DNA of 64,000 nt, taken from assembly GCF_002355595.1 (NCBI RefSeq), contig NZ_AP017422.1, forward strand, positions 7,258,823 through 7,322,822. Reading direction: 5' to 3'. The DNA is from Filimonas lacunae (GTDB lineage: Bacteria > Bacteroidota > Bacteroidia > Chitinophagales > Chitinophagaceae). Below are positions 49,834 to 59,959 of the stretch, piece after piece. Positions within the stretch are counted from its first letter, which is position 1. Each line of letters begins with the position of its first letter. The position numbers were made by a program, and so were the translations under genes. The notes below the pieces were generated by a model that saw only the letters and a list, made by a program, of their open reading frames with translations, had not been told where the DNA came from and did no database searches.

Positions 49834-52800
49834 ATGAAATCCCTTCTGCTCCGATCACTGAAAGTGAGCGGTATTGCTATAGCAGCAATCATTGCTTTGC
49901 TTTTTTTGCTACCCGCCATATTTCCCGGCTTTATTGCTAAAAAAATAAAGACCTGGACCAATAAATCCATACAGGGTGAGCTGAACTTTTCCAAAGCAAG
50001 GCTGTCGTTTTTCCGTCACTTTCCTTCTCTTACTTTAACGTTGCACGACTTTACTTTAAAAGGTTCTGCTCCGTTTAGTAAAGACACGCTTATTTCGGCC
50101 GAAGGGGTTTCGCTTGGGCTTGATTTATCCAGCATATTTTCCAGCACGCTTACGATTAATAAGATATTCGTAGATGATGCGCATATTCATGTGCTGGTAA
50201 ATGAAAAAGGGGAAGCCAACTACAATGTATATGCTTCCAAAAGTGACAAGGCTACCAGTAACCCTGCTGACAGCAGTGATGCTACCCTTAAAATGGAAAG
50301 TATTGTTATTAACAATACCAGCATTATCTATGATGATGCTTCGCTGCCCATGCTCATGAGCTTTAAAGGCTTTAACTACACTGGCAGCGGCGATTTTGAG
50401 AAAGCGATCTTTGACCTGGATAGCCATATTGAAGCCGATTCGGTAGATTTTTCTTATGACCATCAAAACTACTTTCTCTCTAAAAAACTACAGGCCGACT
50501 TAATTACTAAAATCAATACCCATTCGCTTTCGCTGTTGTTTGAAAAGAACGATTTAAAGATCAACTCTTTGCCTGTTCATTTCAAAGGGCACTTTGATAT
50601 CTTAAGCACCGGGTATAATATGGACTTTAAGCTGGAAACAGCGAATACCGATTTGCATGATATCTTTTCTGCCATGCCCGCTGAATACCTGGGATGGCTG
50701 GCCAATACAGACGTGCGTGGCTTTGGTGATATCAACGCTTCCCTGGCTGGTATGTACAGTGCTGCATCTAACCAGATGCCCAGCCTGGAACTGAACATGA
50801 AAATACGCGATGGGTATGTGGCGAATAAGAAAGCGCCCGCACCTATTAAAAACCTGTTTCTGAACCTGCAGGCGCGTGTGCCGCAGATGAAGCCGGATAG
50901 CTTGTTTGTAAACATGGACTCTATCTACTTTAACATTGATAAAGACTATGTAAGCTCTGTAGTAAGAGTGAACGGTTTAAAAGAACCGGAAATATACGCC
51001 AAGCTGAATGCCGCTATTGACCTGGAAAAATGGGACCAGGCCATTGGCTTTGAACCGCTGGATATGAAAGGCCGTTGCAATGTGCATTTGCTGGCAGAAG
51101 GTAAGTATGCTACCAGTGTAGTAAAAACAGGATTGCGTGAGGTGGATACGGTAATTACCAGCATTCCTAAATTCACTTTTCACTCTTCTTTGCAAGACGG
51201 TTATATCAAATATGCCTCGGTACCAGAAGCTATCCGGGACATTAATTTCTCTATCAATGCTTCTTGTCCCGATAACGATTACAAGCACACTACGCTCAGT
51301 GTAGACAGCCTGAGTGCAAAAGTGTTAAGCAACTATATCAAAGGCTTTTTTAAACTATACAATGCAGCCGATTTCTCTATGGAAGGCAAGCTGCAATCGG
51401 TATTGCACTTAAGCGATATTGCCCAGGTGTATCCGCTGGATAGTATGACGCTGAAGGGTGACCTGGCTGTGAATATTACTACCAAAGGGCATTATGTGGC
51501 AGCTAAAAGAGTATTCCCGGTAACTGAAGCCAATCTTACCTTGAAGAATGGGTTTATACAAACCAAGTATTATCCCGAGCCCTTACAGCAAATACAGGTG
51601 CAGGCAGATATCAGCAGCAGTGCCGGTAACTTCCGCACACTGAAAATTGATATCAGTCCGGTTTCATTCCTGTTTGCCGGTCAGCCGTTCTCGTTCCGTG
51701 CCGACCTGCGTAACCTGGATAACCTTCGTTATGCTATTGCTTCCCAGGGAACCATTGATGTGGGTAAGTTGTACAAGCTGTTTGCGGTAAAAGGGTACAA
51801 CCTCAAAGGATTTATACAAACGAATTTATCGCTGCGTGGCTTGCAAAGTGATGCCACCGCCGGTAATTATGATAAACTGGCCAATAAGGGTACTTTAAAA
51901 GTGCGTGACATTGCTTTATATTCCGAGCTGTTTCCACAACCGTTATGGATTAAAAACGGGCTTTTCCGTTTTGATCAGGATAAGATGTGGTTTGATGCTT
52001 TCCAGGGCAAGTATGGTTCTTCTAAATTAACCATGAATGGTTATTTATCTAATGTAATTGCCTATGCTACGCAAGCCCATGCCCCTTTACAGGGAACGTT
52101 TGATGTAAAAAGCGATTTTGTAAAAGTGGATGAACTGATGGCCTTTTCCAATGTAGCGGGTAGTGGTGCGCCTGCCCCTGCCTCTACGGGGGTAATACTG
52201 GTGCCGGATAATTTAAACCTGCACCTGGCAGCTGTTGTTGGGCAGGTACAATACCAGGGCCTGATTATTAAAAATGCCAATGCTAGTATAAAGGTGGATA
52301 GTGGTGCTATTAACCTGCAAAATGCCGGCTTTGAGCTGGCAGGCTGTAAGGTAAACATGGACGCCAACTATAAAAGCCTTACGCCAAAGAAGGCGGAGTT
52401 TGACTATCATATTAATGCCAGTGAGTTTGATGTGCAGCGTATGTATAAAGAGGTGGAGCTGTTCCGAAACATGGTTACCGCTGCTGCAAAAGCACAGGGT
52501 ATTATCTCGCTCGACTATCAATTAAGCGGAAAGCTGAACGGCGATATGCAGCCTATCTATCCTTCTTTAAAAGGTGGCGGTGTACTGAGTGTGAAACAGG
52601 TAAAAATGCGTGGCTTTAAGCTACTGAACGCTGTAGGTAGCAGCACCGGCAGAGAAGGTTTAAAAGATGCAGACCTTTCCAAAATAGATATTAAGTCTAC
52701 CATCAACAATAATATCATCACCATTGAGCGTACCAAAATGAGGGTAGCCGGGTTTCGACCACGTTTTGAAGGCCAGGTAAGTTTTGACGGACGCCTGAAC

Positions 52801-52947
52801 CTGAGCGGTCGTTTAGGCTTACCGCCACTGGGTATTATTGGTATCCCTTTTAGTGTAACCGGAACGCAGGAAAACCCCAAAGTAAAACTGCGCCGCGCAA
52901 AAGATTCAGACAAGCTGGAAGAAACTTCAGAAGAAGGCGATCAATAG
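49834..52947 (+). CDS. AsmA-like protein
   Basis: The 1037-residue protein has an N-terminal membrane anchor (about 12-33) followed by a long periplasmic beta-rich region with an AsmA start (ELNFSKARLSFFRHFPSLTLTLHDF) and an AsmA_2 end (KMRVAGFRPRFEGQVSFDGRLNLSGRLGLP). AsmA/TamB-type proteins form hydrophobic grooves that carry lipid between membranes in Gram-negative bacteria. The C-terminus is acidic (EETSEEGDQ). The stop codon is 14 bases before the first element of the palindrome array. Confidence 0.88.
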   Translation: MKSLLLRSLKVSGIAIAAIIALLFLLPAIFPGFIAKKIKTWTNKSIQGELNFSKARLSFFRHFPSLTLTLHDFTLKGSAPFSKDTLISAEGVSLGLDLSSIFSSTLTINKIFVDDAHIHVLVNEKGEANYNVYASKSDKATSNPADSSDATLKMESIVINNTSIIYDDASLPMLMSFKGFNYTGSGDFEKAIFDLDSHIEADSVDFSYDHQNYFLSKKLQADLITKINTHSLSLLFEKNDLKINSLPVHFKGHFDILSTGYNMDFKLETANTDLHDIFSAMPAEYLGWLANTDVRGFGDINASLAGMYSAASNQMPSLELNMKIRDGYVANKKAPAPIKNLFLNLQARVPQMKPDSLFVNMDSIYFNIDKDYVSSVVRVNGLKEPEIYAKLNAAIDLEKWDQAIGFEPLDMKGRCNVHLLAEGKYATSVVKTGLREVDTVITSIPKFTFHSSLQDGYIKYASVPEAIRDINFSINASCPDNDYKHTTLSVDSLSAKVLSNYIKGFFKLYNAADFSMEGKLQSVLHLSDIAQVYPLDSMTLKGDLAVNITTKGHYVAAKRVFPVTEANLTLKNGFIQTKYYPEPLQQIQVQADISSSAGNFRTLKIDISPVSFLFAGQPFSFRADLRNLDNLRYAIASQGTIDVGKLYKLFAVKGYNLKGFIQTNLSLRGLQSDATAGNYDKLANKGTLKVRDIALYSELFPQPLWIKNGLFRFDQDKMWFDAFQGKYGSSKLTMNGYLSNVIAYATQAHAPLQGTFDVKSDFVKVDELMAFSNVAGSGAPAPASTGVILVPDNLNLHLAAVVGQVQYQGLIIKNANASIKVDSGAINLQNAGFELAGCKVNMDANYKSLTPKKAEFDYHINASEFDVQRMYKEVELFRNMVTAAAKAQGIISLDYQLSGKLNGDMQPIYPSLKGGGVLSVKQVKMRGFKLLNAVGSSTGREGLKDADLSKIDIKSTINNNIITIERTKMRVAGFRPRFEGQVSFDGRLNLSGRLGLPPLGIIGIPFSVTGTQENPKVKLRRAKDSDKLEETSEEGDQ

Positions 52948-52961
52948 ATTTTCAATGCTTT

Positions 52962-53386
52962 AGGGGTGCTTACAGAAGGCTTTGTAAGTACCCGCAAACC
53001 ACCTTGTAAGTACTTACTACGACTTTGTAAGTACATACAGACCCTATTGTAAGCACTTACAAACGCTTCGTAAGTACCCGCAAACCACTTTGTAAGTACA
53101 TACATACGACCTTGTAAGTACATACAAACCCTATTGTAAGCACTTACAAACGCTTCGTAAGTACCCACAAACCACCTTGTAAGTACTTACATACGACCTT
53201 GTAAGTACATACAGACTCTGTTGTAAGCACTTACAAACGCTTCGTAAGTACCCACAAACCACTTTGTAAGTACTTACATACGACCTTGTAAGTACTTACA
53301 AACTCTATTGTAAGCACTCACAAACTGCCTTGTAAGTATTTACAACGGCTCTGTAAATGCCCTAAAACCAGCTGGTAAGTGCTTAC
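52962..53386. repeat. Tandem array of ~22-bp near-palindromic units
   Basis: Twenty elements with core GTAAGTACTTAC (or GTAAGCACTTAC and close forms) start at 52962, 52984, 53006, 53027, 53049, 53070, 53092, 53114, 53136, 53157, 53179, 53201, 53223, 53244, 53266, 53288, 53310, 53332, 53353 and 53375, spaced 21-22 bases. The core is its own reverse complement. Four successive types of unit (flanks CAAACCAC, CATACGAC, CAGACCCT and CAAACGCT) repeat as a larger block of 86-88 bp at 52984, 53070, 53157, 53244 and 53332. No spacers, so it is not CRISPR. Confidence 0.9.
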
Positions 53387-53722
53387 CATGAAATGGAGGG
53401 TACCTACAACTAGATACTAAGTATCCATAAACAAACTGTATGCGCTTCCTGCTATTTTGTAAGTCTTTGTAAGCAATTGCTAAGGGGTATAAAGCGGTTA
53501 GTGAGTACTCGCCAAATGTTACAATGTATCTGGATATGGTTTGTATGTGTTTATCTATAGCTGGTAAGTACCTGGTAATTGTTTGTATTTCTTTTTCAAT
53601 GGGTTATAAGTACTGTCAGGCGATTGTTCCATGCTGCCGAATACAACCAGCATACTTTTCCATGAGGGGGCAGTGCTTGTAAAGGATAGCAAAGTGCTAT
53701 AAAGGAGAAGGTAAGTGCTTAA
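53387..53722. repeat. Decayed continuation of the palindrome array
   Basis: Weak copies continue with about the same phase: GGTACCTAC at 53399, GTATGCGCTTCC at 53438, GTAAGTCTTTGT at 53459, GTGAGTACTCGC at 53501, GTATGTGTTTAT at 53543, GTAAGTACCTGG at 53564, ATAAGTAC at 53606 and GTAAGTGCTTA at 53711. Match quality drops with distance from the AsmA gene. Confidence 0.6.
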
Positions 53723-53729
53723 TCACAGG

Positions 53730-53770
53730 TAAAAAATACCGGGTATTCACTGTACAAACGAATACCCGGT
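53730..53770 (-). terminator. Terminator of the metH genes
   Basis: ACCGGGTATTC (53738-53748) pairs perfectly with GAATACCCGGT (53760-53770). On the minus strand it is followed by ATTTTTT. Confidence 0.87.
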
Positions 53771-58396: not shown

Positions 58397-59959
58397 TTAT
58401 AGCGACTTGCCTGGCAGCTTGCCGCTACCGATTCCGCCGCCTTTACCGGCACCCATTCCAGCGCCTGCTTTACGCTTACCATCAGGGCCATGTGCTTCAA
58501 ACGGATCGCCCGGGCTTACATCCCATTCGTTGTCCCAGTTGGCACGAACGGATATTTTGGCGGGTGTTGCGGGTACTATTAATTCCGGTTGCCTTCTGGT
58601 GGTGCTTAACCAGTATTGTCCAGGAGTCCAAACGCTATCGGCATTGGTGTCGTACAATATTTTCAGTTCATAGTCACCGGGGTTAAACAACCTGCGGAAC
58701 CATTCTTTTTGTTTAATGAACACAGAGTCAACCGTCTTGTCGTTTTGCGTAATTAGCAGCACCGGGTTTTTAGCATAATCTATTTTCTCAAAGTGGAGTT
58801 TTATGCTGCCGTAAGCTGCTTCTTTTTTGGTAACAAATGGCAAGGTGTCGGTGCGATATAAGTTCATGTCGGCACTATCGGTAACCGCCTTGTCCTTTAT
58901 AATCAGTTTCAATTGTGTACCTACCTGCCAGCTATAGCGAAGGGTAAGTTTGGTGGCCGTGGTATCGCTCCAGCTAACAGAAGGTTGCTTAGCCAAAGGC
59001 TTGTAACCGGTATCTGTTAAAACGAAAGCGGTGCTGTCAAAGTTGCGCAGGGGCCTGTTAAAGCTTATTTGCAGATTTCCTAACAAATCCTGCTCGCCGC
59101 CTGCCAGGGAAGTGCCTGTTATTTTCAGGCGCTTATCCTCCTCTTTTTCTTTATCCTTATCCTTTTTCTTATTAGGATTATTATTACCTGAATTGGTAGT
59201 GGTGGATTTGGTTTTGGGGCCTTCTTTATATTCCTGGTAAGCATACATGGTAACGGATGGGGTATGTGTACTTACGGTAATGTTAGAATCGGCAAAGGCA
59301 AATAGCTTGGTGCTGTCGTCATATTTTTTACTGTAATCGTCCGGGATAATGAACAGGGAAAATGTTTCGGCCGGCAAATGGGCAAAACGGAAGTTGCCGC
59401 TACCGTCTATCCTGGCGTAATAACGTGGCGTATTTTTATAAATAGCCGTATCGTTCAGGTTTTGGTGCAATACTGCAATAAGGGTGGTATCTACTTTACC
59501 GGTTTGGGCTACCAGCACACGACCTTCCAGGTAGTTGCTGTCAATGTAGCTGCCGGTGCTGAATACGTAAGTCAGTTGCTTAGCCACGTTGCCTTCGTTT
59601 ACGTCCTTAATGGCATGGCCAAAATTGATGGAGTAAGTGGTATTGGCTTCCAGGCTATCGCGCAGTTTTACCGTAATGGTACGCAGCTTGCCAGAAACCT
59701 GTGGGGCGTTTTTAGGAACAGGCGATACTATCAGGTTTTGCTGGGCATTATCCAGCGTAACGTATTCGTCGAATGTAATAACAATTTTATCACTGTTAAA
59801 GTGCAATGCAGAATCGCGCGGCACTGCACTTACCAGCACAGGTGGCAAACTGTCTTTAGGTCCGCCGCTGGGAGGAATAATGTTAGCACAGGAATGTAAA
59901 AGTTGTGTAGCAGGTAGCAACAGCAACAACACAAAGGCGGGCAAAAATGATTGTTTCAT
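58397..59959 (-). CDS. Lipoprotein with bacterial Ig-like (Big_5) domain
   Basis: The 520-residue product has a lipoprotein signal with the lipobox LLHSC, then ANIIPPSGGPKDSLPPVLVSAVPRDSA split at the Ig-like Big_5 domain, a common start in Bacteroidota surface lipoproteins. A Lys-rich acidic-basic segment (NNPNKKKDKDKEKEEDKR) lies mid-protein and the C-terminus is Gly/Lys-rich. The frame is open to 59986; ATG 59959 is chosen because a -7 element (59980-59987) would lie over the first Met. Function unknown. Confidence 0.83.
   Translation of the reverse strand: MKQSFLPAFVLLLLLPATQLLHSCANIIPPSGGPKDSLPPVLVSAVPRDSALHFNSDKIVITFDEYVTLDNAQQNLIVSPVPKNAPQVSGKLRTITVKLRDSLEANTTYSINFGHAIKDVNEGNVAKQLTYVFSTGSYIDSNYLEGRVLVAQTGKVDTTLIAVLHQNLNDTAIYKNTPRYYARIDGSGNFRFAHLPAETFSLFIIPDDYSKKYDDSTKLFAFADSNITVSTHTPSVTMYAYQEYKEGPKTKSTTTNSGNNNPNKKKDKDKEKEEDKRLKITGTSLAGGEQDLLGNLQISFNRPLRNFDSTAFVLTDTGYKPLAKQPSVSWSDTTATKLTLRYSWQVGTQLKLIIKDKAVTDSADMNLYRTDTLPFVTKKEAAYGSIKLHFEKIDYAKNPVLLITQNDKTVDSVFIKQKEWFRRLFNPGDYELKILYDTNADSVWTPGQYWLSTTRRQPELIVPATPAKISVRANWDNEWDVSPGDPFEAHGPDGKRKAGAGMGAGKGGGIGSGKLPGKSL

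What the first reader, a model, noticed from the sequence alone, without database searches (positions are those of the whole stretch)
52962..53722. Phased array of palindromic 22-bp units with a higher-order repeat and a decay gradient
Seen directly: about 20 near-palindromic units (core GTAAGTACTTAC) at 21-22 base spacing, close to two helical turns, so every site faces the same side of DNA. Unit types recur in fours as an 86-88 bp block. Divergence grows steadily toward metH with phase largely kept, as if new copies are added at the AsmA side and old ones decay. There is no spacer, gene or known mobile element. Inference: a binding array for a dimeric protein, a nucleoid or segregation site, or a self-amplifying satellite. 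I know no named family that fits.
Basis: partly seen in the sequence, partly recalled or inferred. Interest (0 to 1): 0.8.

Follow-up and report, generated by a model that had tools for sequence, protein, structure and literature searches.

The report
Phased 21-bp palindromic satellite arrays
A patch of repetitive, mirror-symmetric DNA between two genes turns out to be one of an estimated sixty such arrays in this bacterial genome, which differ in sequence but mostly keep a 21-letter rhythm (two turns of the double helix), hinting that the rhythm rather than the wording is what matters.

Summary
In detail: 52984-53343 holds 17 near-palindromic units (core GTAAGTACTTAC), 21-22 bp apart, in an 87-bp block of four, with a sharp AsmA-side edge and a metH-side tail that decays mostly in 21-bp steps. 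It is not unique. Three sister arrays lie elsewhere in the chromosome, and an even 25.6% sample of the genome shows 15 intergenic arrays with period exactly 21 bp (a sister with 22 is a sixteenth), about 60 per genome by extrapolation, mostly of unrelated sequence. In 18 fitted arrays (322 units) units match their consensus at only 51-72%, yet one phase slip was found against 2665 off-consensus positions; 15 of 18 profiles are palindromic (p<0.05); several repeat in blocks of four (84 bp). At 2 of 5 orthologous sites looked at, a congener carries a 21-bp array of unrelated sequence. Arrays look non-coding, mostly not curved, without compensatory pairing. The kind is known (20-23-nt bacterial satellites of constant size and variable sequence, Subirana and Messeguer), function unknown. 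Best reading: a geometry-constrained satellite, probably a scaffold for a dimeric or wrapping DNA-binding factor; a neutral slippage satellite is the chief rival. An origin or segregation site is not supported for the class.

The parts
52984..53343 (.). Young part of the array: 17 near-palindromic units (core GTAAGTACTTAC), steps of 21-22 bp, higher-order block of four units (87 bp)
53344..53722 (.). Decayed tail of the array: nine weaker cores, mostly multiples of 21 bp apart
52948..52983 (.). Sharp edge between the AsmA stop codon and the first unit
49834..52947 (+).
   Evidence: ORF

Best explanation
The array is the cleanest member seen of a genome-wide class of non-coding intergenic satellites whose conserved property is geometry: a short, roughly palindromic core repeated every 21 bp (two turns of B-DNA), so that successive cores face the same side of the helix. 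Shown by sequence comparison: arrays repeat in blocks of two or four units (84-87 bp), some have been copied to other sites, and at two orthologous sites the period persists while the sequence differs. Inferred: a low-specificity dimeric or DNA-wrapping protein (nucleoid-associated type) occupies the same-face cores cooperatively, and loss of phase is selected against. No binding protein was identified and no binding was shown.
For: In 2.0 Mb sampled evenly (100 stretches), intergenic self-match peaks at lags 21, 84, 63, 42 (z 14.7, 13.2, 11.5, 10.7), while lags 20 and 22 are negative. Of 459 intergenic gaps of 150 bp or more, 18 have a best period (12-35 tried) with z>6: 21 bp in 15, 22 in 1 (a sister array), 12 in 1, 15 in 1; of 918 shuffled gaps none passes z>6 (largest 5.4). 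In 18 fitted arrays (15 of the sample plus 3 from earlier stretches) there are 322 units, 2665 positions off consensus and 1 slip; a simulation recovers 257 of 360 planted single-base indels as slips. Column profiles are palindromic at p<0.05 in 15 of 18. Column conservation is uneven (p<0.02) in 8 of 10 arrays that I set apart as lacking a strong higher-order repeat, with 1-6 columns at 85% or more and 4-9 at 50% or less. At 2 of 5 flanking-gene sites the congener G002 has a 21-bp array of unrelated sequence. Stop-free frames in arrays have codon usage unlike called genes.
Against: No protein is identified. The window family itself has drifted to 21.75 bp (A2: 21.5), so strict phase is not obligatory. 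No 10.5-bp sub-period and no general excess of curvature. 21 is a multiple of 3, and lags 6, 9, 12, 15, 18 and 24 are also raised (z 6.6-9.2), a sign of unannotated coding in the gaps. The 2665 positions are not independent events, since units share ancestry. Detection needs about 8-10 in-phase units, which favours arrays without indels, and 103 of 360 planted indels were not called as slips (45 cut the array short). Congener G001 has no array at 4 of 4 sites found, G002 none at 3 of 5 (metH, L170, and L110 with a weak gene match), so no given array is essential. Three of 18 profiles, and 3 of 9 arrays of relatives, are not clearly palindromic; two of those 9 show one slip each.
Confidence: 0.45

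Rival explanations
1. Neutral or selfish satellite: palindromic units promote replication slippage and unequal exchange, the array expands in blocks of units, and old copies simply decay; the 21-bp size is a by-product of the amplification mechanism.
For: Higher-order blocks, related arrays at distant sites with unrelated flanks, no array at many orthologous sites, symmetric profile without compensatory change as expected if a palindromic ancestor decays.
Against: One slip at about 39% divergence and columns of very uneven conservation are not expected of free decay; the indel to substitution ratio expected from mutation (about 1:10, recalled) would give on the order of a hundred slips if the off-consensus positions were independent events, which they are only in part.
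Confidence: 0.33
2. Array of operators for one sequence-specific dimeric regulator of this family (GTAAGTACTTAC).
For: 12-16-bp palindrome; same core in four arrays of the genome and in a short decayed 21-bp array of one Bacteroidetes MAG.
Against: Of 147 genomes of the taxonomic family the own one has 22 exact sites and the other 146 at most 3 (this would miss decayed arrays); other arrays have other cores but the same geometry; no preference for divergent, promoter-rich gaps.
Confidence: 0.1
3. Origin-proximal segregation or domain site (parS-like).
For: The four sister arrays lie at -1.10, -0.83, +0.08 and +0.25 Mb from the parS cluster; post hoc chance about 0.006 under even placement (hand calculation).
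Against: parS of the usual sequence is present elsewhere (9 sites); the 15 sampled 21-bp arrays lie 0.16-3.89 Mb from it, 2 of 15 within 1.1 Mb, with no significant clustering (Rayleigh p about 0.17); congener G002 has no array beside metH.
Confidence: 0.05
4. Transcribed RNA scaffold or processed small RNAs from hairpin units.
For: Either strand would fold far better than shuffles (z -10.0 and -12.6).
Against: Any palindromic array folds well; no within-unit compensatory change in 18 arrays (summed z -2.7); Rfam gives only eleven matches, all below their gathering scores and all to microRNA families.
Confidence: 0.05
5. Protein-coding heptad repeat (21 nt = 7 codons).
For: A frame without stops spans 9 of 18 arrays (3.6 expected from column shuffles; 3 of 18 for the reversed sequence, 6 of 18 for mock stop codons); L137 against L193 mismatches by codon position 24/16/31; indels are rare, as in genes.
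Against: The other 9 arrays have stops in all six frames; stop-free frames score -0.285 to -0.015 per codon against 0.094 (sd 0.036) for 1211 called genes, though these were called with the same model; the window region 52941-53760 has 7-17 stops in every frame; palindromic profiles are not expected of a gene.
Confidence: 0.02

Closest known systems
20-23-nt bacterial tandem repeats (satellites) of constant size and variable sequence, Subirana and Messeguer (PMC8161180: abstract, introduction, section 3.3 and discussion read, and term passages; the 2020 J Bacteriol survey is recalled, not read)
   Same: Non-coding, unit about two helical turns, several families per genome, species-specific sequence, function unknown; the authors suggest a polymerising nucleoid protein or small RNAs.
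   Different: Here the period is exactly 21 in 15 of 16 sampled arrays, units are strongly diverged (51-72% to consensus), profiles are mostly palindromic, blocks of four recur, and a congener has other sequence at the same sites. The words palindrom and Bacteroid do not occur in that paper's main text.
REP / BIME elements with RAYT transposases (titles and starts of abstracts only; otherwise recalled)
   Same: Intergenic palindromic units, sometimes in clusters.
   Different: REPs are 20-40-bp palindromes, many tagged GTAG or CGTC (title and start of abstract of PMC3733652); here tandem 21-bp phase, diverse sequence, no recurring tag in the window array.
Alpha-satellite higher-order repeats of centromeres (recalled)
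   Same: Young higher-order core beside decayed monomers; period kept while sequence turns over.
   Different: Bacterial, a few hundred bp, dispersed; no centromere role shown.
Plasmid iterons and partition-site arrays (recalled)
   Same: Repeats of about 22 bp on one face of DNA.
   Different: Chromosomal, many different sequences; no blastn match of the window array in the plasmid or phage collections at E 1e-5.
CRISPR or other guide arrays (recalled)
   Same: Regular palindromic repeats, one-sided decay.
   Different: No unique spacers: the inter-core sequences recur every fourth unit.

Membership tests
20-23-nt constant-size bacterial satellites | Tandem unit of 20-23 nt | tested here: met
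20-23-nt constant-size bacterial satellites | Not part of a protein-coding gene | tested here: met
   (window array clearly; 9 of 18 other arrays have a stop-free frame of non-gene codon usage)
20-23-nt constant-size bacterial satellites | Several families of the same unit size and different sequence in one genome | tested here: met
20-23-nt constant-size bacterial satellites | Species-specific sequence | tested here: met
   (only the own genome of 147 has more than 3 exact sites); exception: short decayed array of the same core in L067
REP/BIME | GTAG or CGTC tag at the foot of a 20-40-bp palindrome | tested here: not met
   window array: GTAG 0, CGTC 0 and GACG 0 on the + strand, CTAC once in the young part and once in the tail; tag rule from a title and start of abstract
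REP/BIME | RAYT transposase in the genome | not tested
   no search made
parS centromere | GTTNCACGTGNAAC-type sites | tested here: not met
   all 9 sites of the genome lie at 7.063-7.065 Mb, none in the array
CRISPR | Unique spacers between near-identical repeats | tested here: not met

The most novel reading that the evidence does not exclude
Bacteria of this group carry a satellite chromatin: dozens of intergenic arrays selected for helical phase and symmetry rather than for sequence, persisting at the same loci while their sequence is replaced by amplification of four-unit blocks, read by a DNA-wrapping or polymerising nucleoid protein that measures 21 bp.
Probability: 0.3. Interest if true: 0.85.

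Novelty: new variant of a known kind. Interest (0 to 1): 0.62.

Why it matters
Constant-size, variable-sequence bacterial satellites have no known function. A genome with an estimated 60 of them, with far fewer phase slips than off-consensus positions, and with two orthologous sites in a congener where the sequence differs but not the period, makes the question testable: whether selection acts on geometry, and which protein reads it.

Tried and rejected
Coding heptads: unlikely for the class. RNA hairpins: strong folding but no compensatory change; Rfam only below gathering scores. Intrinsic curvature: mean z 0.2 over 18 arrays, wedge values recalled from memory; two arrays stand out (L157 z 4.0, L127 z 2.1). 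Convergent-gene or terminator element: the 16 sampled arrays are 9 tandem, 4 divergent, 3 convergent against 333, 168, 73 of 574 gaps, no evident preference, no test made. Origin site: see rivals. Phage or plasmid origin: no blastn match; the 8 viral contigs found by pattern carry a pair of sites in an otherwise different AT-rich region. Single GTAAGTACTTAC sites in the 9 relative loci looked at are not in arrays, by eye. Polarity of growth: a 15-base edge motif is shared (but for one base) by the sharp edges of two sister arrays and has no other match of that pattern in the genome (three places with one mismatch); the window array lacks it. A common purine/pyrimidine pattern was tried but the arrays had been oriented by the same criterion, so no claim is made. 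The 21-spaced pattern search of 396 genomes hit 26 genomes, but the reversed control pattern also hit many and 7-bp microsatellites match it, so its hits alone are no evidence.

Rows dropped: own-genome loci L205, L234 and L081 were left out of the count over relatives; loci L231-L233 were not scanned; the choice of 10 arrays without strong higher-order repeat was mine (of the other 8, five have p<0.05).

Full report
What is there. TRF reports period 22 (16.7 copies) and period 87 (4.2 copies, 92% matches) within 52969-53345. The core GTAAGTACTTAC with up to two mismatches occurs 19 times in the window, 17 of them in 53006-53722; chance gives 2.9 and no shuffle of 100 gave 19. The first 17 units run from 52984 to 53343 with steps of 21 or 22 bp and four unit types in a block of 87 bp. 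The following 380 bp hold nine weaker cores (shuffles give 1.8 on average, none of 500 gave nine), with steps 21, 42, 31, 32, 42, 21, 42, 105.

It has sisters. The own genome (one contig, 7,814,405 bp) has four arrays of this family: near 5.965, 6.239, 7.147 and 7.312 Mb, the last being the window's. By eye each has one sharp and one decayed edge; decayed parts keep multiples of 21 well in A1 and A2, less well in A3. The sharp edge abuts the 3' end of a gene in three and an upstream region in one, so the polarity may only reflect the neighbouring gene. Two sisters share an edge motif (14 of 15 bases alike) whose pattern has no other exact match in the genome. Among 147 genomes of the taxonomic family, own included, only the own genome has more than 3 exact core sites, and blastn found no such array in 28 relatives. 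In the genome-contig scan, a strict two-unit pattern hit one contig, of a Bacteroidetes MAG (L067), which has a short decayed 21-bp array with the same core.

It belongs to a larger class. I took 100 stretches of 20 kb evenly from the genome and called genes with a simple codon-usage caller (79% coding in the sample, so some genes are missed). In the 574 intergenic gaps of 100 bp or more (327 kb), self-match peaks at 21, 84, 63 and 42 bp (z 14.7, 13.2, 11.5, 10.7), with 20 and 22 below expectation; other multiples of 3 such as 6, 12, 15 and 24 are raised too (z 6.6-9.2), probably missed genes. Eighteen of 459 gaps of 150 bp or more have a best period with z>6: 15 at 21 bp, one at 22 (the sister array A1), one at 12, one at 15; none of 918 shuffled gaps does. 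Scaled up this is about 60 detectable arrays per genome. The sequences differ: cores such as GGAAGCTTCC, ACGGAANTTCCG, GGTTAACC, CCAGGGAGTTCCCTGG are read; only a few pairs are clearly related (L137-L193, 85% over 511 bp; L131-L045, 65% over 370 bp; a short match L157-L054).

Properties. I fitted 18 arrays: the 15 of the sample with period 21 and three (L054, L056, L045) from stretches fetched earlier (found). They hold 322 units that match their own consensus at 51-72%, that is 2665 deviating positions (not all independent), with one phase slip, at the end of one array. Planting single-base indels and refitting recovers 257 of 360 as slips and 45 as shortened arrays, so slips are truly rare, though arrays with many indels would have been missed at detection. 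Profiles are palindromic beyond column-permuted controls at p<0.05 in 15 of 18 (no correction for multiple tests). Within units the two halves do not compensate each other's changes. In 10 arrays that I set apart as lacking a strong higher-order repeat, columns differ in conservation in 8 at p<0.02, with 1-6 columns at 85% or more beside 4-9 at 50% or less; of the other 8 arrays five have p<0.05. Where a higher-order repeat is strong it is four units (L127, L137, L204, L056), four or eight (L113) or two/four (L133, L193), as in the window (87) and sister A3 (87); sister A2 has two (43). By the raw rule (excess over 0.08) the best n was 4 in five arrays and 8, 7, 6, 2 in one each. There is no general excess of curvature (two exceptions) and no 10.5-bp sub-period. 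Coding is unlikely: 9 of 18 arrays have a stop-free frame (3.6 expected from column shuffles; controls 3 and 6 of 18), but its codon usage lies below that of called genes.

Relatives. Five flanking genes were used to find the same sites in congeners. Downstream of the homoserine dehydrogenase gene (annotation mine), where sister A1 sits, G002 (protein 95% identical) has a 21-bp array (z 14.1) before a right flank that is 86% identical over 619 bp; blastn finds no likeness between the two arrays. Downstream of the gene left of L056 (92% identical) G002 has a 21-bp array (z 25.0); the 1500 bp downstream of the two genes share no blastn match. Downstream of the gene left of L170 G002 has none; for L110 it has only a weak gene match and no array. 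Next to metH G002 has no array, and by eye a LOG-family-like gene follows where AsmA stands in the window. G001 has no array at the four sites found (metH, A1, L170, L056). In 80 kb of G002 taken without regard to arrays, two gaps have 21-bp arrays. Of 25 loci of relatives scanned beside metH, one (G017) has a 21-bp array, about 0.7 kb downstream. Elsewhere in the order, loci brought in by a 21-spaced pattern (so biased) show similar arrays, some of them only 7-bp microsatellites. Of nine arrays of relatives fitted, six have palindromic profiles at p<0.05 and two show one slip.

Place on the chromosome. Nine parS-like sites lie at 7.063-7.065 Mb, near the GC-skew switch (between samples at 6.62 and 7.14 Mb). 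The four sister arrays lie within 1.1 Mb of it, but of the 15 sampled 21-bp arrays only two do, and their positions do not cluster significantly.

Reading. The constancy of 21 bp with sequence turnover, the kept phase at high divergence and the uneven column conservation argue that geometry is under selection; I take a phased scaffold for a dimeric or wrapping DNA-binding factor as most likely (0.45) and a mechanistically sized neutral satellite as the main rival (0.33). The drift of the window family to 21.75 bp and the absence of arrays at most orthologous sites count against a strict, essential function. The kind was described as 20-23-nt bacterial tandem repeats of constant size and variable sequence, with the remark that the length is two helical turns and with a nucleoid protein or small RNA proposed (PMC8161180: introduction, section 3.3 and discussion read; term search). 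PMC6749651 and PMC8625621 were seen as abstracts, the former also by term passages, and PMC12255303 by passages; others as listings. I saw no description of palindromy, phase retention or four-unit blocks in bacterial satellites in the listings; subscription papers are not covered, and the 2020 survey by the same authors was not read.

Noticed in passing
own genome G000:C1:7063446-7065245 (L068-L070): Nine parS-like sites (GTTNCACGTGNAAC) within 1.8 kb, near the GC-skew switch, while dnaA lies at the contig start; if the contig is circular the origin may be about 0.75 Mb from dnaA.
   Followed up: partly
L097-L104 (IMG/VR contigs): Eight viral contigs each have two GTAAGTACTTAC palindromes exactly 21 bp apart; seven of them, as printed, share a similar AT-rich surrounding.
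   Followed up: partly
L083 (G032), about 1405-1585 and 1790-1915: Two different 21-bp arrays within 500 bp of each other in a relative (the second by eye).
   Followed up: partly
G358, G402, G420, G435 (same genus g183), control columns: The reversed control pattern with 21-bp spacing hits these genomes up to 30 times per strand, suggesting many 21-bp (or 7-bp) repeats of another sequence there.
   Followed up: no
G005 and G407 (L088, L095): Seven-base microsatellites (CTACTTA and relatives) in several copies.
   Followed up: no
L038:9907-10281 and L040:9533-9907: Two 124-codon open frames run through sister arrays A1 and A3, where 87 is a multiple of 3; in the window array and A2 no open frame is as long (longest 87 and 42 codons, stop to stop).
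   Followed up: partly
window 59132-59172: Short imperfect repeat of 18-19 bp inside a predicted gene (Lys/Asp/Glu-rich stretch).
   Followed up: no
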